Origin: JACPSX01 sp035288405 [NCBI: bacterium]
GTDB taxonomy: Bacteria; JACPSX01
Length of the DNA stretch: 7,247 nt
Direction: 5' to 3'
Assembly (NCBI GenBank): GCA_035288405.1
Contig: DATEAK010000313.1
Location: forward strand, 1 to 7,247
The notes below the pieces were generated by a model. It saw only the letters and a list, made by a program, of their open reading frames with translations. It searched no databases and was not told the origin of the DNA. Shown piece after piece: positions 472 to 6,990 of this stretch (position 1 is the stretch's first letter; each line of letters starts with the position of its first letter). The position numbers and the translations under genes were made by a program.

Positions 472-1464
472 ATGACGACGTGGAAGCCGGAGTGTTCGCT
501 TCAAACGACCGCCCTGGCCCAAAAAATGGGCCCATTTGCCAGCTTGGGAGAGGATGTCCGCCGGGGGTTGACGAAGATCCCGAAGGAATTGCCTCCCAAA
601 TACTTCTATGATGCCTACGGCGGAAAGCTCTTTGACCGGATTTGCGATCTCCCTGAATACTATCTGACTCAAACCGAGCAAGCTCTCCTCGAGAAGATTA
701 GCGAGGATCTGATTGCCTCGTGCCGTCCTACGAGCCTGGTGGAGTTCGGCTCGGGAAGCTGCCGCAAGACCCGGGTCTTGCTCGATGCCATGTCCCGACG
801 TGGATGTCTCGACCTCTACATACCGATTGATCTGAATGAAGACTTGATTCAGTCAACAGCGCGCACTCTGCAAAATGAATTTCCGGGATTGCGGGTCTGC
901 GGCGTGACCGGTGACTTTAATCTCCCGGTCGAGCTTCCTCCCCGGGAGGGGCGGCGACTGGTTGCTTTCCTGGGGAGCACCATCGGGAATCTTGCTCCGC
1001 AGGAGGCCATCTCCTTCCTGCGCAGTGTGGCAAACCACCTCTCGCCACAGGACTGCTTTCTGCTGGGAACGGACCTGGTAAAGGACAGGAGCGTTCTGGA
1101 AAGAGCTTACAACGACGCTGCGGGTGTGACGGCGCAGTTTAACCGGAATATGCTGTCGGTCATCAATCGACACCTGGGTGCGGATTTTCAACTGGATTGG
1201 TTTGAACACCTCGCATTTTATAACGAGGCAGAGTCGCGGGTCGAAATGCACCTGGTGGCCCGGAAATCCCACCGTGTCTGGATCGAAGACATCGGACTGG
1301 CCGTTGACTTCACCGAAGGAGAATCGATCCGCACGGAAATCAGCTGCAAGTATACCCGGGGAATGGTTGAAAAGATGCTGGAAGAAGCGGGACTTCAGCT
1401 CTTGCGTTGGGAAATGGACGCGGACAATCTGTTTGCCCTCTCCGTTTCCGCAGTTTGTCGTTGA
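472..1464 (+). CDS. egtD: L-histidine N-alpha-methyltransferase EgtD (hercynine synthase)
   Basis: EgtD is a cytosolic SAM-dependent enzyme that trimethylates the alpha-amino group of histidine to give hercynine, the precursor of ergothioneine and selenoneine. At 330 residues it has the normal family length. The hallmarks occur in order: LPPKYFYD (41-47), LPEYYLTQTE (60-69), the SAM-binding loop VEFGSGSCRKTR (90-101), PIDLNEDL (118-125), FLGSTIGNL (167-174), LLGTDLVKD (197-205), RAYNDAAGVTAQFN (211-224) and TEISCKY (288-294). Aligned by eye with mycobacterial EgtD, whose numbering is offset by 7, the histidine-binding residues are all kept: Tyr46, Tyr63, Asn173, Tyr213, Glu289 and Ser291. The ATG has a good ribosome-binding site (AGAGGGGG) and is the first sensible start. 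The TGA stop lies 8 bases before the start of the next gene, implying a translationally coupled operon. I am very sure of the family and activity. Confidence 0.96.
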   Translation: MTTWKPECSLQTTALAQKMGPFASLGEDVRRGLTKIPKELPPKYFYDAYGGKLFDRICDLPEYYLTQTEQALLEKISEDLIASCRPTSLVEFGSGSCRKTRVLLDAMSRRGCLDLYIPIDLNEDLIQSTARTLQNEFPGLRVCGVTGDFNLPVELPPREGRRLVAFLGSTIGNLAPQEAISFLRSVANHLSPQDCFLLGTDLVKDRSVLERAYNDAAGVTAQFNRNMLSVINRHLGADFQLDWFEHLAFYNEAESRVEMHLVARKSHRVWIEDIGLAVDFTEGESIRTEISCKYTRGMVEKMLEEAGLQLLRWEMDADNLFALSVSAVCR

Positions 1465-1472
1465 GACCCGGA

Positions 1473-2582
1473 ATGATCAGGGCTCGAGCGGAAACGGTCG
1501 GCAGCTTGCTGCGCCCGCCCTGGCTGCTCAAGGCCCGGCAGGAAATGGCTGCGGGAGTCCTCACTCCGTCGGATTTTAAGGCCGGCGAAGACCGGGCGGT
1601 CGATGAGGCTGTCTCTCTCCAGGAAGCGGCTGGCTTCGAGGTGATTACCGATGGAGAGATGCGCCGTCAGTCCTTTCAAAGCCAGATGACGGAAGCCGTC
1701 CATGGATTTGGCGAGCCGACGACCGCCGCGTTTCTGTGGGGCAGCTGGCACGGGGACGACGAGGTGGGAGACTGTACGCTGCCGCGTCCGGCGTCTCTGG
1801 GGGTTGTCGACAAACTCCGGCGCCGGCGACACCTTTCGGCGGAGGAGTTCACCTACCTGCGGGGCCGCACTCATAAAACCGCCAAGGTCACGTTGCCAAG
1901 CCCGAGCCTCTTTGCGAATTTCTGGTCACCCGGGCGCTCCACAGCAGCCTATTCGACATTCGATCTTTTCCTAGCGGACGTAGTGGAAATTTTGCGGGAC
2001 GAAGTAGCCGAACTGGTCCGTCTGGGGGCGAGTTACATCCAAATCGATGCCCCTCATTACGCTCTGCTGGTGGACCCTCAGACTCGGTCTTTTTATGAAG
2101 CTCGGGGGTGGAGCCTGGATCGCTGGCTGAGTGAAGGCATCGAAATGGACAACGCCGTAATGGGCAACTTTTCGGAAGTGACGTTCGGTTTTCACCTTTG
2201 ACGGGGCAACCAGGACAGCCGGTGGCTGGTCCGGGGCGGATATGAAAGAATCGCGCGCCAGATTTTCCAGAAGGTCAAGGCCCACCGTTTACTCCTTGAG
2301 TATGACGACGATCGCTCCGGATCCTTTGCGCCGCTGGGCGAAGTGCCGGCAGACAAAATCGCCGTTTTGGGTTTAATCACGACAAAGAATTCCCGCTTGG
2401 AATCTGCAGCCGAAATTATCGGGCGCATTCGGGAAGCAAGCCGTTTTCTTCCTTTGGAACAACTGGCCTTAAGCCCGCAATGCGGGTTTGCCACTTCGGT
2501 CATCGGAAACCGCCTTACTCCTTTGGACCAGAACCGCAAGCTCCGACTGGTCGTGGACACAGCGCGCTCGGTCTGGGGCTGA
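1473..2582 (+). CDS. MetE C-terminal-like methyl/alkyltransferase, candidate selenoprotein with in-frame TGA (Sec243)
   Basis: Read through the TGA at 2199-2201, this is one 369-residue frame of the 'cobalamin-independent methionine synthase II' family (MetE C-terminal barrel; relatives include core-MetE and epoxyalkane:coenzyme M transferase). These enzymes bind zinc and activate a thiol for methyl or alkyl transfer. Family signs are TVGSLLRPPWLL near residue 8, EAAGFEVITDGEMRRQSF (about 54-71), YIQIDAPHYALLVDP (about 189-203), FHL-U-RGNQDSRW (240-251), LLLEYDD (273-279) and LSPQCGF (333-339). The zinc ligands align as His241, residue 243 (Cys in relatives, TGA here), Glu276 and Cys337. The 61-residue Glu-Cys spacing equals that of E. 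coli MetE (665/726). The N-terminal MetE domain that binds folate is absent. I chose ATG 1473 because it gives the usual family N-terminus; the upstream ATG 1407 overlaps egtD and adds an unrelated stretch. Annotation pipelines will split the gene at 2201. A pseudogene or sequencing error (TGC/TGT to TGA) is the alternative. The physiological substrate is unknown. Confidence 0.85.
2199..2201 (+). other. In-frame TGA, proposed selenocysteine codon
   Basis: The codon occupies residue 243 of the MetE-like frame, the X-position of H-x-[X]-R-G-N where relatives have a zinc-binding Cys. TGA differs from either Cys codon by one base. The same gene ends in a TGA at 2580-2582, and egtD and the permease gene also end in TGA. 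A genome-wide reassignment of TGA is therefore unlikely, and a local recoding signal would be needed. No other stop or frame change occurs between 2202 and 2579. Confidence 0.75.
2213..2232 (+). promoter_or_regulatory. Candidate bacterial SECIS hairpin
   Basis: GGAC (2213-2216) pairs with GTCC (2229-2232) and AGCC (2217-2220) pairs with GGCT (2224-2227). One G (2228) bulges on the 3' side, and a GGU loop (2221-2223) closes the structure. The loop starts 20 nt after the TGA. Known bacterial SECIS elements sit directly downstream of the UGA, with a small apical loop roughly 16-37 nt away and a G in its first two positions; E. coli fdhF has a loop containing GGU. The fit to that model is seen directly, but SelB binding is inference. 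The hairpin overlaps codons conserved in the family (QDSRWLV), so chance pairing cannot be excluded. Confidence 0.65.
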
Positions 2583-2626: not shown

Positions 2627-3949
2627 ATGAGAACAGAAAGTAAAACCACCGTTTCCGATCTGATGGAAATGATTACTGAGGCTCAGGGGATCGCCCTCAA
2701 TCTGGTCGAAGACCTGACGGATGAGCAAATGCTGGGACCCCGCCTGCCGATTGTGAACCCTCCGCTTTGGGAGATTGGCCATGTCGCATGGTTTCAAGAG
2801 AAATGGGTCTTGCGGCACCTGGGAAAGGCGAAGCCGATCATCCCCGAGGCGGACTCTCTCTATGACTCTGCTTGTGTCCCTCACGATTCTCGCTGGGAGC
2901 TGCCTCTGCCTTCCCGGCGGGAAACCTTCCGCTATGTGCAGGAGGTGCGTGACCGGGTGCTGGATCGTCTGATCTCCATCGCACCGAATGCGGCGGAAGA
3001 TTACTTCCATCACCTGGCGGTTTTCCATACAGGAATGCACGCTGAAGCCTTCACCTATACCCGGCAGACTTTGGGATACTCCCGGCCCCAGCTTCTTGTC
3101 CCTCCGGGCAGGGTTCATTCTGAGGCGGCGGGTACGGGATCTTTGCCGGGCGACGTGGAAATTCCCGGTGGCACGTATTGGCTTGGAGCGACTCCCGACC
3201 TTCCGTTTGTCTTTGACAACGAGAAGTGGGCACACCCGGTCCCTCTGAGGACATTCCGGATCGCACGTGCACCGGTGACAAACGCCGAGTATGCCTCTTT
3301 TGTCGAGGAGGGAGGCTACCAACGCCGGGAGTTTTGGTCCGATGAGGGATGGATCTGGCGTGAACAATCCGGTGCCCGCCATCCTGTCTACTGGGAGCAT
3401 GGATCCGGGGGACGATGGTTTCGGCGTAGTTTCGACCGTTGGGTGGCGCTGGAGGATCATCACCCGATCGTTCACGTAAACTGGTACGAGGCCGATGCCT
3501 ATTGCCGTTGGGCCAGCCGCAGGTTGCCGGCGGAATCCGAGTGGGAGATGGCGGCCAGCGTAAATCGGTTGCCCGATGGTCGGGAGAGGGAAGAGCGGAA
3601 ACGGACGTTTCCCTGGGGAGACGAGCTTCCCTCGCCGGACCGAGCTCATCTGGACTTTGCCGGCCTTAGCTGCATTGACGTGGGATTTCTTTCCTCCGGC
3701 GACAGCGCTTTCGGATGCCGGCAGATGATCGGGAACGTGTGGGAGTGGACGAGCACGGACTTTGACGCCTATCCGGGTTTTGTGGCGGATCCGTACAAAG
3801 AATATTCCCAGCCGTGGTTTGGAACTCACAAAGTCCTGAGAGGAGGCTGCTGGGCGACGGGCTCTCGCTTGATCCGCAACACCTGGCGGAATTTTTACAC
3901 AGCGGACCGCCGGGACGTTTTCGCCGGCTTTCGTACGTGCGTCCTCTAG
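2627..3949 (+). CDS. senA: Iron-dependent EgtB/SenA-family synthase, probably SenA-like (selenoneine synthase)
   Basis: This 440-residue protein has an N-terminal DinB-like helical domain (about 10-150) and a C-terminal formylglycine-generating-enzyme (FGE)-sulfatase-type domain (about 175-440), the architecture of EgtB, OvoA and SenA. Such enzymes use non-haem iron and O2 to join hercynine to a sulfur or selenium donor, giving a sulfoxide or selenide. The expected iron ligands are His52 (LWEIGHVAWFQEKW) and the H-x3-H pair His134/His138 (FHTGMHAEAF). Other landmarks are DSLYDSACVPHDSRWELPLPS (76-96, split here only by my reading), FVFDNEKWAHPV (194-205), VHVNWYEADAYCRW (282-295), GDSAFGCRQMIGNVWEW (358-374), VLRGGCWAT (403-411) and RRDVFAGFRTC (428-438). 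The DSLYDS..V.HD.RW, HxxMHxEAFxYTRQTLGY and GGCWAT patterns are those I associate with SenA-type proteins; classical EgtB has FNSYY and HEQQH. That subfamily call comes from memory, without an alignment. No senB is adjacent. A strong GGGAGGAG site precedes the ATG. Confidence 0.8.
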   Translation: MRTESKTTVSDLMEMITEAQGIALNLVEDLTDEQMLGPRLPIVNPPLWEIGHVAWFQEKWVLRHLGKAKPIIPEADSLYDSACVPHDSRWELPLPSRRETFRYVQEVRDRVLDRLISIAPNAAEDYFHHLAVFHTGMHAEAFTYTRQTLGYSRPQLLVPPGRVHSEAAGTGSLPGDVEIPGGTYWLGATPDLPFVFDNEKWAHPVPLRTFRIARAPVTNAEYASFVEEGGYQRREFWSDEGWIWREQSGARHPVYWEHGSGGRWFRRSFDRWVALEDHHPIVHVNWYEADAYCRWASRRLPAESEWEMAASVNRLPDGREREERKRTFPWGDELPSPDRAHLDFAGLSCIDVGFLSSGDSAFGCRQMIGNVWEWTSTDFDAYPGFVADPYKEYSQPWFGTHKVLRGGCWATGSRLIRNTWRNFYTADRRDVFAGFRTCVL

Positions 3950-3981: not shown

Positions 3982-4716
3982 GTGGGTGCCCAAGTTTCAC
4001 TCGAAGGGGTAAGCAAATTCTACGATAACGAGAAAGCACTCCAGGACATCCACCTCACCTTCACGGAGGATGTCACGACCGCCGTGGTCGGTCCCAGCGG
4101 GAGCGGAAAATCAACCCTCCTGCAATTGATTAACGGGCTCATCCGTCCCAGCCGGGGGGAAATTTCGGTCTTTGGAAGTCTCATCGACTACGACCGATTG
4201 CCGCAGCTCCGATTGCGGATCGGCTATGCGGTGCAAGGTACCGGGCTGTTCCCTCACCTGACTGTCTGGGAAAACATAACGCTTCTTGCCAGGCTCGTCC
4301 GCTGGGATCCCGCACGAATCAAAGGACGTGGGCAGGAACTCATGCGATTGGTAGGCCTATCCTCTTCGTTGGAAGGTAGATACCCTCACGAACTCAGCGG
4401 TGGACAACAACAGAGAGTGGGACTATGCCGGGCCATGATGTTAAACCCCAGGATCTTTCTTCTCGACGAGCCCTTCGGAGCACTCGATCCCATGACGCGC
4501 AGTGAAATTCACCAGGAATTCCTGCACCTGCAAAAGTCGGAGGCGAGGACCATTATCCTGGTGACTCATGATCTGCGAGAGGCGCTGAAGCTTGCTCAGG
4601 AGGTGGTGATCCTGAATCGGGGGAATCTCGTGCAACGAGGAACTTGCGCGGAAATCGTGCAAAGCCCGGCCGGCGAGTTTGTGGAGACCTTTCTGAATTC
4701 CCAACTCGAAGACTAG
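3982..4716 (+). CDS. ABC transporter ATPase, OpuC/OsmV/EgtV type
   Basis: This 244-residue cytosolic ATPase drives the transporter whose other half is the next gene. All nucleotide-binding motifs are intact: Walker A GPSGSGKST (37-45), Q-loop Gln85, signature LSGGQQQR (138-145), Walker B IFLLDEPFGALD (158-169) and switch His196 (VTHD). It resembles quaternary-amine (glycine betaine/choline/carnitine) uptake ATPases such as OpuCA. It lacks the C-terminal CBS pair that many of those use to sense ionic strength, which suggests it is not a classical osmostress pump. The start is GTG; AGGAG at 3969-3973 lies 8 bases upstream. An ATG at 3978 is in another frame and stops after 16 codons. The gap to the upstream gene is 32 bp and to the downstream gene 13 bp, so all three are probably co-transcribed. 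Confidence 0.93.
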   Translation: MGAQVSLEGVSKFYDNEKALQDIHLTFTEDVTTAVVGPSGSGKSTLLQLINGLIRPSRGEISVFGSLIDYDRLPQLRLRIGYAVQGTGLFPHLTVWENITLLARLVRWDPARIKGRGQELMRLVGLSSSLEGRYPHELSGGQQQRVGLCRAMMLNPRIFLLDEPFGALDPMTRSEIHQEFLHLQKSEARTIILVTHDLREALKLAQEVVILNRGNLVQRGTCAEIVQSPAGEFVETFLNSQLED

Positions 4717-4729
4717 GCTGGAGGCCCGT

Positions 4730-6235
4730 ATGAAACAATTGGCCATCGTAGTGGCCGCGAGTTTCCTCCTCTTGTTTTTGCCGCCCGGGAGCGTCTCCGC
4801 CCCGCGGCAGACCATCGTGGTGGGTTCCAAGCACTTCAACGAGGGGTACATTCTGTCGGAGATCATGGCGCAGCTCCTGGAGGATCGAGGGTTCCAAGTG
4901 GACAGGAAGTTTGGTTTGGGAGGAACCCTGATCTGTTTTGACGCTCTGCGCAACGGGGGGATCGACTTATACCCGGAATATTCGGGGACCTTGGAGCAGG
5001 CGGTCTTGAAGCTTCCGCGCAGGGCATCCTACCGGGAACTGCGCCGTCGTCTAAAGGAGCAGTTTGGTTTGGATCTTCTGGATTCGTTCGGTTTTAGCAA
5101 CAGCTATGCCGTTGCCGTAAGCCGAACACTTGCCGAGAAGATCGGGCTGAAAACGATCAGCGATTTGGCGAGATTTCCGAACCTTCGGTTTGCTTTCAGC
5201 CTCGAGTTCCTCAACCGGCAGGACGGGTGGCCCGGGCTGGCTCGAACCTACGGTCTCTCCGTGCGTCCCTTGGGGATTGAACACGGACTGGCCTACCAGG
5301 CGATTCGGGAAAACAAACTGGACTTGACCGATGTCTACTCCACAGATGGAGACATTCGGAAGTTCGATTTGGTCCTCTTGAAAGACGACCGGCGCTACTT
5401 CCCCGACTATCTGGCTGCACCGTTGGTCCGCGCTGATGTGGACGAGGGAGCCAAACAATCTCTGGGTGAGCTGGCGGGCACGATCTCGGCGACCGAGATG
5501 CAGGAGCTAAACGGGATGGCCGTGCTCGAGGGGAAGAGCTTTGCGGAAATCGCGCGAGAAGTTTTGAGCAAGAAAGGGCTGCTCCATGGCGGAAGAAGCT
5601 TCAGGGAGCGCAGTAGATGGGCCACTCTGCTCTCTCGGACGGGGACACACCTCAAGCTCACTCTGATTGCGCTCCTGGCAGCCATGGCACTTGCGATCCC
5701 TTTTGGAGTGTTGATCTACCGCCTCCGTGTGATCTCCCGGCCGGTGATTTATGGTGCCGGGCTACTGCAGACGATCCCATCGATCGCTCTCCTTGCCTTC
5801 ATGATTCCTTTGCTGGGAATTGGGTCGGTGCCGGCCATCGTAGCCCTGTTCCTGTACGCCCTTTTGCCCATTTTGAGGAACACGGCGGCTGCACTGTTCT
5901 CCATCGATCCGGTGCTCAAGAAAGTGGCCGTCGGGATGGGCCTTACGGCCTGGCAGCGCCTGCGCCACGTTGAGCTCCCACTGGGCGTACCCACGATTCT
6001 GGCCGGCATCAAAACAGCAGCCGTCATCAACATCGGCACGGCCACACTGGCTGCGTTCATCGGGGCCGGCGGTCTCGGAGAGCCGATTGTCACCGGTCTC
6101 GCCTTAAATGATACGTCACTCATTCTGGAAGGGGCGATCCCGGCGGCTTTGCTGGCCGTCCTCACCGAATTTGCCTTTGAGGTGCTCGAAAGGCTGGTAA
6201 TCCCCAAGCACCTCCGGCAAAAGCCTGCGGAATGA
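4730..6235 (+). CDS. Fused substrate-binding protein/permease of a quaternary-amine (EgtU-like) ABC transporter
   Basis: This 501-residue fusion has three parts. Residues 1-24 form a signal peptide ending SVSA. Residues about 27-285 form an OpuAC/YehZ-type binding domain (VVGSKHFNEGYILSEIMAQLL at 30-50, FGLGGTLICFDALRNGGIDLYPEYSGT at 61-87, DVYSTDGDI at 201-209). Residues about 300-495 form a five-helix permease with QTIPSIALLAFMIPLLGIGSVPAI (347-370), ILRNT (381-385), an EAA-type loop VGMGLTAWQRLRHVELPLGVP (401-421) and NIGTATLAAFIGAGGLGEPI (434-453). Such systems bind trimethylammonium compounds; EgtU-EgtV of some pathogens import ergothioneine. The binding domain is N-terminal here, whereas in OpuC-like/EgtU fusions I know it follows the permease. 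Operon position after egtD and a SenA/EgtB gene suggests ergothioneine, selenoneine, hercynine or a betaine as ligand, which is inference. GGAGG lies just before the ATG. Confidence 0.92.
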   Translation: MKQLAIVVAASFLLLFLPPGSVSAPRQTIVVGSKHFNEGYILSEIMAQLLEDRGFQVDRKFGLGGTLICFDALRNGGIDLYPEYSGTLEQAVLKLPRRASYRELRRRLKEQFGLDLLDSFGFSNSYAVAVSRTLAEKIGLKTISDLARFPNLRFAFSLEFLNRQDGWPGLARTYGLSVRPLGIEHGLAYQAIRENKLDLTDVYSTDGDIRKFDLVLLKDDRRYFPDYLAAPLVRADVDEGAKQSLGELAGTISATEMQELNGMAVLEGKSFAEIAREVLSKKGLLHGGRSFRERSRWATLLSRTGTHLKLTLIALLAAMALAIPFGVLIYRLRVISRPVIYGAGLLQTIPSIALLAFMIPLLGIGSVPAIVALFLYALLPILRNTAAALFSIDPVLKKVAVGMGLTAWQRLRHVELPLGVPTILAGIKTAAVINIGTATLAAFIGAGGLGEPIVTGLALNDTSLILEGAIPAALLAVLTEFAFEVLERLVIPKHLRQKPAE

Positions 6236-6407: not shown

Positions 6408-6501
6408 TGCAGTGAAGGTCGGGGATTTGCTGCAAGAGTTGCACGCCTTCATTGAATCCGGACAGAAGCCTGTGAAAATCAGGATGAGAGGAGATTCACT
6501 T

Positions 6502-6990
6502 ATGCTCGATGAACATGCCAAGAAGACGGCGCTGCGGATGATCCCGTACGGGATGTTTATCCTTACGACAAAGAGCAAAGATGGCCGAGACATCGGCGCG
6601 GCCACGGTGAATTGGGTCACGCAAACTTCCTTTAAGCCGCCTCTCGTTGCGATTGGCGTGAAAGTCGAGTCGGGCGTCCATCGTCATATCAGGGATACCG
6701 GTGTTTTTGCAATGAACGTCATCGGTAAGGACCAACGCGAGATGGCATTTAACTTTTTTAAGTCACACGAACGCCAGGGTGAATCGATCGGTGGCGAGCG
6801 TTTCGAACCCGGCTCGGCAACGGGATGCCCGCTGCTGCTGAGGGCGCCGGCATGGTGGGAGTGTAAAATTGTCGGCGAGGTTGCCAAGGGAGATCATACG
6901 CTCTTTGTGGGAGAAGTGCTGAACGCCGGTTTGCGAAGGGGAGATCAGGCCATTCTCATGCGGGAGCACGATCTCTACTACGGGGGCTAA
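6502..6990 (+). CDS. Flavin reductase-like (FMN-binding split-barrel) protein
   Basis: With the ATG at 6502 this is a 162-residue cytosolic protein of the flavin reductase-like domain family, whose members bind FMN and either reduce free flavin with NAD(P)H or pass electrons to a partner. The domain spans nearly the whole chain: ALRMIPYGMFILTT (10-23), TVNWVTQTSFKPPLVAIGVK (35-54, FMN-contact region), GVFAMNVIGKDQREMAFNFF (67-86), FEPG..TGCPLL (about 102-111), AWWECKIVGEVAKGDHTLFVGEV (about 117-139) and a terminal YYGG. I prefer 6502 because AGAGGAGA precedes it at good spacing and homologues start close to this point. A GTG at 6412 in the same frame would add 30 residues (VGDLLQELHAFIESG...), a plausible helix but without a ribosome-binding site. 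The gene is probably the last of the operon; its partner is unknown. Confidence 0.88.
   Translation: MLDEHAKKTALRMIPYGMFILTTKSKDGRDIGAATVNWVTQTSFKPPLVAIGVKVESGVHRHIRDTGVFAMNVIGKDQREMAFNFFKSHERQGESIGGERFEPGSATGCPLLLRAPAWWECKIVGEVAKGDHTLFVGEVLNAGLRRGDQAILMREHDLYYGG

What the first reader, a model, noticed from the sequence alone, without database searches (positions are those of the whole stretch)
1473..2582. MetE-like methyltransferase is split by a TGA that looks like selenocysteine
The frame before and after the TGA at 2199-2201 is the same, with no other stop or frameshift over the next 126 sense codons. Those codons encode the rest of the family fold, including the Glu and Cys zinc ligands and the usual C-terminus (SPQCGFATSVIGNRLT...). 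The TGA replaces precisely the Cys of H-x-C-R-G-N. A random nonsense mutation would hit the single functionally critical Cys only rarely, and a pseudogene would be expected to show more decay. I know of no described selenoprotein in the cobalamin-independent methionine synthase family, though I cannot search.
Basis: partly seen in the sequence, partly recalled or inferred. Interest (0 to 1): 0.93.

Follow-up and report, generated by a model that had tools for sequence, protein, structure and literature searches.

The report
Selenocysteine in a MetE-type methyltransferase
A bacterial enzyme of the methionine-synthase family appears to carry selenocysteine, read from a UGA 'stop' codon, where its relatives have a zinc-binding cysteine, and its gene sits in a cluster that looks built around the selenium antioxidant selenoneine, so selenium may be used both in the enzyme and in the pathway around it.

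Summary
At 1473-2582 a 369-residue MetE-core protein has one in-frame TGA (2199-2201) at the first Cys of the His-x-Cys zinc motif. It is not decay: of 18 close members compared (window, 16 genomes, 1 plasmid), 11 have TGA at this codon and no other inner stop, 7 have Cys. In the 11, a hairpin (CAGCC-GGU-GGCUG) follows at SECIS distance; only 3 of 139 invariant, degenerate columns keep one codon in all 11, and all three lie 4-9 codons after the TGA; Cys genes show no such focus. SelB is found in 9 of 10 TGA genomes, tRNA-Sec in 5 of 6 searched whole; the window's own genome is not held. A 2026 inventory of 119 prokaryotic selenoprotein families lists no MetE-type protein. I conclude a new selenoprotein family, with Sec as probable zinc ligand, linked to selenoneine-type genes. 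Metal binding, methyl donor and acceptor are inferred, not shown.

The parts
1473..2582 (+). MetE-core (PF01717) selenoprotein gene, here called MetU (working name), 369 aa with Sec at 243
   Evidence: start ATG matches the starts of most relatives
2199..2201 (+). UGA codon read as selenocysteine (residue 243), at the first Cys of the His-x-Cys zinc motif
   Evidence: same codon is TGA in 11 of 18 and Cys in 7 of 18 close members
2216..2228 (+). Apical hairpin CAGCC-GGU-GGCUG, proposed bacterial SECIS; loop starts 19 nt after the UGA
   Evidence: codon freeze; bSECIS rules from PMC13188914
2213..2231 (+). Possible lower extension of the SECIS stem (columns 15-33 and 16-32 of A3)
   Evidence: RNAalifold consensus; the pair 15-33 fails in 2 of 11
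2193..2195 (+). His241 codon, zinc ligand by homology
   Evidence: invariant in 26 of 26 aligned rows
2298..2300 (+). Glu276 codon, zinc ligand by homology
   Evidence: invariant in 26 of 26 rows
2481..2483 (+). Cys337 codon, zinc ligand by homology
   Evidence: invariant in 26 of 26 rows; aligned with the NPDCG Cys of Candida MetE
472..1464 (+). EgtD, histidine N-alpha-methyltransferase (makes hercynine)
   Evidence: TIGR03438 364.9 bits, cut-off 290.9
2627..3949 (+). SenA-type selenoneine synthase (EgtB superfamily)
   Evidence: NF041186 502 bits, cut-off 420
3982..4716 (+). ABC transporter ATPase of the cluster
   Evidence: PF00005; same neighbour in relatives
4730..6235 (+). Fused substrate-binding protein (OpuAC) and permease, betaine-type importer
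   Evidence: PF04069 and PF00528; same neighbour in relatives

Best explanation
The gene encodes a selenoprotein. Shown by comparison: the UGA at 2199-2201 is conserved as a sense codon, replaced only by Cys codons in the relatives compared, and followed by a SECIS-like hairpin under selection; the protein is predicted with the MetE catalytic barrel. Inferred: SelB and tRNA-Sec insert Sec at residue 243, so that a zinc is held by His241, Sec243, Glu276 and Cys337, and the enzyme binds a homocysteine-like amino acid through Ser11, Glu62 and Asp192, activating its sulfur (or selenium) as a metal-bound nucleophile for methyl transfer. It is a single-barrel 'core' enzyme without the second, N-terminal barrel of MetE, so the methyl donor is probably not polyglutamyl folate. 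From its place between egtD and senA, the likeliest role is methyl traffic around hercynine/selenoneine: either recycling of the homocysteine that follows from EgtD's use of SAM, or moving a methyl group on or off a chalcogen product. Which of the two is open (see the last two rivals, which are sub-readings of this one).
For: Conserved UGA/Cys site: 11 TGA, 7 Cys of 18. TGA members include loci whose record titles name Tectomicrobia, Methylomirabilota, Acidobacteria and Nitrospinota. Codon freeze peaks after the UGA in the Sec group: the 8 best of 147 eleven-codon windows start at codons 242-249; in the Cys group the window starting at codon 244 ranks 37th of 140. 3 of 139 columns are single-codon, all in codons 244-254, p about 8e-5. 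The hairpin pairs in 54 of 55 cells and appears in 9 of 11 single-sequence folds of Sec genes against 2 of 7 of Cys genes. SelB and tRNA-Sec in carriers. MetE barrel: AlphaFold2 pLDDT 91.7, Z 35.0 to 1ypx, 34.0 to 3rpd and to T. maritima MetE 1xr2. The zinc and homocysteine residues of MetE listed in PMC7857596 (passages) map to invariant columns. Gene cluster: EgtD-MetU-SenA-ABC-SBP/permease in 5 members (ends cut by the contig in G001), EgtD-MetU-SenA fragment in G019, related layouts in 4 more.
Against: No peptide or selenium measurement. SelB is also common without the gene (34 of 41 non-carriers) and is in 5 of 6 Cys genomes, so it does not discriminate. G020 (TGA) has no SelB hit and G001 (TGA) no tRNA-Sec; no tRNA-Sec lies on the SelB contigs of G023 and G284 as far as fetched, and those two genomes were not searched whole for it. 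The bSECIS rules are loose, and Cys homologues keep the upper four pairs because the S-R-W-L protein motif is conserved. There is no base-pair covariation. Seven of 18 members show no link to the cluster, and G284 only a loose one. The window-type genomes G001, G002, G019, G020 and G023 lack SenB over cut-off, so selenoneine production there is itself uncertain.
Confidence: 0.85

Rival explanations
1. Nonsense mutation or sequencing error in a Cys enzyme: the TGA is an accident and the gene is a pseudogene.
For: Reads and own genome not available.
Against: Same TGA in 10 further assemblies at 63-77% identity, exactly one inner stop in each; selection on protein after the TGA; synonymous freeze right after the TGA only in TGA genes.
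Confidence: 0.01
2. UGA is read by a route other than Sec: genome-wide UGA reassignment or leaky read-through with Trp/Cys.
For: Read-through without Sec is known in principle (recalled).
Against: EgtD and the SBP-permease in the same window end in TGA. In the rows compared the position alternates only with Cys, and most carriers have SelB, several a tRNA-Sec.
Confidence: 0.02
3. A selenoprotein, but with a housekeeping role: a methionine synthase that regenerates methionine from the homocysteine that follows from EgtD; Sec merely protects the zinc site from oxidation.
For: All three homocysteine-binding residues are invariant; EgtD is the neighbour and consumes SAM; E. coli MetE is recalled to be oxidation-sensitive at a Cys near the active site.
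Against: The same operon exists without this gene in G018, G021 and G022, which have no match to it at E 1e-60, so EgtD does not need it; no test of activity; under the cut-off of every NCBIfam methionine-synthase model it matches.
Confidence: 0.4
4. A selenoprotein dedicated to organoselenium: it moves a methyl group on or off selenoneine or a related selenol (for example Se-methylselenoneine to selenoneine, methyl passed to homocysteine).
For: Co-localisation with SenA; with SenA-SenB in G008 and, about 6 kb off, in G284; a superfamily relative (C. ljungdahlii Mlp2) is reported to transfer methyl between methylcobalamin and selenide (PMC10418091, passages).
Against: No structural evidence for a selenoneine pocket; Cys forms sit in the same kind of cluster; window-type genomes lack SenB over cut-off.
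Confidence: 0.35

Closest known systems
Listeria monocytogenes putative B12-independent methionine synthase, PDB 1ypx
   Same: Same single barrel and length, HICRGN, LEYDNERSG and SPQCGF motifs; Z 35.0 over 311 residues, 160 bits by sequence
   Different: Cys, not Sec, in the motif; about 30% identity; its gene neighbourhood was not examined here
MesD core methionine synthase, PDB 3rpd (PMC7857596, passages)
   Same: Core barrel, zinc and homocysteine residues, Z 34.0
   Different: 48 bits only; MesD has an insertion with Tyr226 and needs MesX; no Sec; no DUF1852 hit among the 7 window proteins scanned
MetE (cobalamin-independent methionine synthase, TIGR01371)
   Same: Catalytic barrel, ligand set His-Cys-Glu-Cys
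   Different: Lacks the N-terminal barrel; 38.2 bits against a cut-off of 929.95; Sec for the first Cys
SenABC selenoneine cluster of Variovorax (PMC10891094, passages)
   Same: SenA above the curated cut-off beside the gene; SenA-SenB beside a Cys member in G008
   Different: The word methyl does not occur in that paper's main text by term search; the window has EgtD and an importer, no SenB over cut-off nearby
Type 1 mlp clusters (PMC10418091, passages)
   Same: UroD/MetE-superfamily methyltransferases linked to selenium and to genomes with Sec machinery
   Different: Mlps are MtaA-like corrinoid enzymes of anaerobes; the passages seen do not call them selenoproteins
Arsenite methyltransferase and other selenoprotein methyltransferases (Table 1 of PMC13188914)
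   Same: Sec in a methyltransferase
   Different: Other families and domains; no MetE/PF01717 entry in the table

Membership tests
Bacterial selenoprotein | In-frame UGA with Cys at the same place in homologues and intact frame beyond | tested here: met
   11 TGA, 7 Cys of 18; 24 of 24 outgroup rows Cys
Bacterial selenoprotein | bSECIS downstream (3-9 nt loop with G in first two positions, 4-16 bp upper stem, 16-37 nt from UGA, MFE at most -7.5) | tested here: met
   5-bp stem, GGU loop, 19 nt, -15.4 kcal/mol for the window over 51 nt (rules). The rules are loose: 2 of 7 Cys genes fold the same hairpin
Bacterial selenoprotein | SelB and tRNA-Sec in the same genome | tested here: inconclusive
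   Own genome not held. In other TGA genomes SelB 9 of 10; tRNA-Sec 5 of 6 searched whole, plus G019
Bacterial selenoprotein | Selenium in the purified protein | not testable with these tools
   needs 75Se label or mass spectrometry
MetE-core family (PF01717) | Profile match over the gathering score | tested here: met
   54.7 bits, cut-off 21
MetE-core family (PF01717) | MetE catalytic barrel | tested here: met
   Z 35.0 to 1ypx, 34.0 to T. maritima MetE 1xr2, on a predicted model
MetE-core family (PF01717) | Zinc ligands His, Cys, Glu, Cys | tested here: met
   His241, Glu276, Cys337 invariant; the first Cys is Sec243 here. Metal binding itself not tested
MetE-core family (PF01717) | Homocysteine-binding Ser, Glu, Asp | tested here: met
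   S11, E62, D192 invariant in 26 rows
MetE proper (TIGR01371) | Two-barrel protein over the equivalog cut-off | tested here: not met
   369 aa; 38.2 bits against 929.95
PRK06520 subfamily (NF005085) | Score over the curated cut-off | tested here: not met
   233.1 against 313; nearest NCBIfam model all the same
Selenoneine (sen) cluster | SenA over cut-off | tested here: met
   502 against 420
Selenoneine (sen) cluster | SenB in the cluster or genome | tested here: inconclusive
   None of the 7 window proteins scanned matches it; own genome not held. Over cut-off in 7 of 16 carrier genomes (G004, G006, G007, G008, G010, G170, G284), not in 9 (G001, G002, G003, G005, G019, G020, G023, G037, G038)

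The most novel reading that the evidence does not exclude
A selenoprotein that serves a selenometabolite: a zinc methyltransferase whose metal is held by a genetically encoded selenocysteine and whose substrate is an organoselenium compound of the selenoneine pathway, so that the Sec-decoding system and the small-molecule selenium pathway meet in one operon.
Probability: 0.35. Interest if true: 0.92.

Novelty: new variant of a known kind. Interest (0 to 1): 0.83.

Why it matters
The 2026 review says that most characterised selenoproteins have a thioredoxin-like fold with a redox motif. A Sec in the MetE zinc site would put selenium into a non-redox zinc methyltransferase, and the natural Sec and Cys forms (11 and 7 here) offer a ready-made comparison of what selenium does to a zinc-activated nucleophile. 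The cluster links Sec decoding to selenoneine-type genes, two uses of selenium usually treated apart. It also shows a selenoprotein family in largely uncultured lineages whose genes a standard caller would cut at the UGA.

Tried and rejected
Pseudogene and code reassignment were considered and set aside (see rivals). SelB as a discriminator led nowhere: it is in 34 of 41 non-carriers and in 5 of 6 Cys genomes. RNA covariation gave nothing, as the hairpin pairs hardly vary; codon freeze was the useful test. Single-sequence folds show the hairpin in 9 of 11 Sec genes, not in G002 and G019. The tree needs 4 changes for the Sec label (bootstrap 3-5), but many inner branches are unsupported and starred branches alone force only 1, so gain and loss cannot be told apart. 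Papers: one search found none joining MetE-like with selenoprotein and selenocysteine; one search listed 6 papers, of which I looked into one (PMC10418091, passages); one search listed four joining selenoneine with methionine synthase, none on this subject by title; one search listed one review, seen as a listing only. The Haft and Gwadz 2023 paper on new selenoprotein families is not held; I know its families only through the 2026 review's table. The original SenABC paper was not looked up; I relied on PMC10891094 passages. Whether the switch to Cys follows SelB loss could not be tested (one Cys genome, G010, lacks SelB). Dropped before counts: the outgroup row L063 (start cut off), matches that were given no locus, and columns where the amino acid varies.

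Full report
1. The observation. The window encodes, all on the + strand, EgtD (472-1464), a PF01717 protein interrupted by one TGA (1473-2582), a SenA-type protein (2627-3949), an ABC ATPase (3982-4716), a fused OpuAC-permease protein (4730-6235) and a flavin reductase (6412-6990). Reading the TGA at 2199-2201 as a residue gives 369 amino acids with no other stop before 2580.

2. Relatives. A scan of genome contigs with the read-through protein gave 8 loci at 62-77% identity. The matching codon is TGA in 6 of 8 and TGC in 2 of 8. Searches in groups around these genomes (3, 95, 1, 396, 16 and 399 genomes, some drawn from larger groups) added 8 genomes with a close member (63-70% identity): G019, G020, G023 and G284 with one TGA, G010, G037, G038 and G170 with Cys. 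A plasmid of Rubrobacter radiotolerans has a Cys form. In all I compared 18 close members: 11 Sec, each with exactly one inner UGA, and 7 Cys. Twenty-four more distant homologues (43-54% identity, 23 and one) all have Cys there and form the outgroup; one further, L063, was cut off at its start and left out. The 18 form one starred clade (95/98). Within it the Sec label needs 4 changes (bootstrap 3-5), but many inner branches are weak.

3. Selection on the RNA. If the UGA is decoded, the bases after it should be constrained beyond the protein. Taking columns where the amino acid is invariant, I measured how often the commonest codon is used, against the mean for that amino acid. In the 11 Sec genes the eight highest of 147 eleven-codon windows all start at codons 242-249. 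In the 7 Cys genes the window starting at codon 244 ranks 37th of 140. Counted more simply, 139 such columns exist in the Sec set and only 3 have a single codon in all 11 genes: Gln247, Ser249 and Leu252. All lie in the stretch 244-254 that had been named and holds 7 such columns (hypergeometric p 8e-5). The Cys set has 15 single-codon columns of 133, spread over the gene; two of them, Gln247 and Ser249, are also in this stretch. Third bases that fit the hairpin differ between sets: codon 248 C in 11 of 11 against 3 of 7 (the amino acid varies here too), codon 250 G in 10 of 11 against 2 of 7, codon 252 G in 11 of 11 against 2 of 7 (Fisher p 0.011, 0.013, 0.0025); codon 249 does not differ. 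These tests treat related genes as independent, so the p values are optimistic.

4. The hairpin. The alignment fold of the 11 Sec genes puts CAGCC-GGU-GGCUG at 2216-2228, with 54 of 55 pairs formed. The loop begins 19 nt after the UGA and starts with G. This meets the bSECIS rules quoted in PMC13188914 (passages). Two deviants still fit: G005 has an AGGUG loop on a shorter stem, G284 has a GUU loop. Folded one by one over 51 nt, 9 of 11 Sec genes and 2 of 7 Cys genes form this hairpin. In the Cys genes the upper four pairs could still form, because S-R-W-L is a protein motif, while the basal pair is standard in only 3 of 7. The pairs do not covary, so the structure rests on codon constraint and position, not on compensatory change.

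5. Decoding machinery. SelB over the curated cut-off is present in 8 of 8 genomes (G001-G008) and, in G019, G023, G284, G037, G038 and G170, but not in G020 or G010. Thus 9 of 10 TGA genomes and 5 of 6 Cys genomes have it. It is common in the background (34 of 41 non-carriers), so its presence is needed but not telling. tRNA-Sec: the best Rfam hits of G002-G008 are tRNA-SeC with anticodon TCA by ARAGORN. The three hits of G001 over the Rfam cut-off are tRNA-Trp and two tRNA-Ser, so G001 has none found. G019 has tRNA-SeC on its SelB contig. The SelB contigs of G023 and G284, as far as fetched, show none; these genomes were not searched whole for it, and G020 was not tested. The window's own genome is not held.

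6. The protein. AlphaFold2 with 24 own rows gives pLDDT 91.7. The closest solved folds are Listeria 1ypx (Z 35.0), MesD 3rpd (Z 34.0) and T. maritima MetE entries (Z 33.4-34.0), some with zinc, homocysteine or methyl-folate. PMC7857596 (passages) lists the MetE zinc ligands as His641, Cys643, Glu665, Cys726 and the homocysteine contacts as Ser433, Glu484, Asp599. The equivalents here are His241, Sec243, Glu276, Cys337, and Ser11, Glu62, Asp192. All seven columns are invariant in 26 aligned rows, Sec counted as Cys. The match of His241, residue 243 and Cys337 to Candida MetE is direct in the sequence alignment; that of Glu276 rests on 1ypx and on its place at a strand end, and is an inference. 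Metal binding is not shown.

7. The setting. The gene lies in the order EgtD-MetU-SenA-ABC-SBP/permease in the window, G001 (ends cut by the contig), G002, G020 and G023, and EgtD-MetU-SenA fragment in G019. In G008 the order is EgtD-MetC-SenA-SenB. In G010 it follows EgtD-ABC-SBP/permease, and SenA-SenB stand at the start of another contig. In G038 it follows SenA-EgtD-ABC-permease/SBP; in G037 it follows EgtD-ABC-permease/SBP, with SenA and the start of an EgtD at the end of a second contig. In G284 SenB and SenA are about 6 kb away on the other strand. In the remaining 7 of 18 (G003, G004, G005, G006, G007, G170, Rubrobacter) no link is seen; for G003 the contig is only 3,764 bases. The same operon without this gene exists in G018, G021 and G022, which have no match to it at E 1e-60, so the gene is an optional part. 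SenA over cut-off was found in 11 of 16 carrier genomes, under the cut-off in 2 (G170, G284; partial matches), and not in 3 (G003, G005, G019; G019 has the fragment). SenA is also common in relatives without this gene, so co-occurrence proves little; adjacency is the evidence. In a SenA tree the window's SenA groups with that of G001 (100*), next to those of G002, G020, G023, G018, G021 and G022 (84), apart from the SenB-linked ones.

8. What it does. SenA joins hercynine to a selenosugar made by SenB (PMC10891094, passages). EgtD makes hercynine from histidine and SAM (established knowledge). A zinc methyltransferase between them, with the homocysteine site kept, can serve in two ways: recycling the homocysteine that follows from EgtD, or moving a methyl between homocysteine and a methylated selenium or sulfur product. 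Replacing the ligand thiolate by selenolate should make the zinc-bound nucleophile more electron-rich or the site harder to over-oxidise; both are inference. That G001, G002, G019, G020 and G023 lack SenB over cut-off leaves open what their SenA uses as donor, and weakens the selenoneine-specific reading.

9. Novelty. The inventory of PMC13188914 (Table 1, 119 families or subfamilies; section 7 parts 1 and 2 of 3 read, which hold the whole table) has no PF01717, MetE or UroD entry (also term search). NCBIfam has no model whose cut-off this protein passes. deep-Sep (PMC12013277) and the 2022 review (PMC9312934) do not mention methionine synthase in their main text (term searches). Full-text searches for the combination found nothing on this subject. 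Most subscription papers and preprints are outside that library. I rate it a new selenoprotein family: a new variant of a known kind, not a new kind of system.

Noticed in passing
L112:13012-14043 (G002), L029:1474-2508 (G001), L122, L123: Of 25 genomes, 6 have SenB over cut-off and no second match at E 1e-15, while 18 of the other 19 (not G037) have a divergent SenB-like glycosyltransferase instead (70-96 bits, cut-off 300); G001 and G002 have one too (107 and 82 bits). It lies beside a gatB-like gene in three of four loci read and has EGGMSN/EGGMAN where SenB is reported with EGGAHV. An alternative selenosugar synthase, or an unrelated enzyme; genomes without SenA were not compared.
   Followed up: partly
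L008:8116-8812 and 13622-14319: A direct repeat of about 698 bases at 99% identity, holding a zinc-ribbon-like ORF, flanks the EgtD-MetC-SenA-SenB operon of this Nitrospinae genome, as if the operon had been moved as a unit.
   Followed up: partly
G004 (L017 and G004:C84:51850-53718): This betaproteobacterial MAG has two SelB genes, two tRNA-Sec-like hits (64.9 and 63.7 bits; only the first checked by ARAGORN) and two SenA genes on different contigs: two Sec systems, or a mixed bin.
   Followed up: no
L003:2427-3764: In G003 the Sec gene is followed by a radical-SAM-like protein (PF04055 at 25.2 bits, under the cut-off of 29.5); by eye a similar kind of protein follows the Cys gene in L004. 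A possible corrinoid link for the methyl donor.
   Followed up: no
window 4730-6235: Substrate-binding domain first, permease second in one protein, next to ergothioneine/selenoneine-type genes: an importer for betaine-like molecules, perhaps ergothioneine or selenoneine.
   Followed up: no
window 6412-6990: A flavin reductase domain gene follows the cluster; no match to it appeared in L002, where the rest of the cluster is kept.
   Followed up: no
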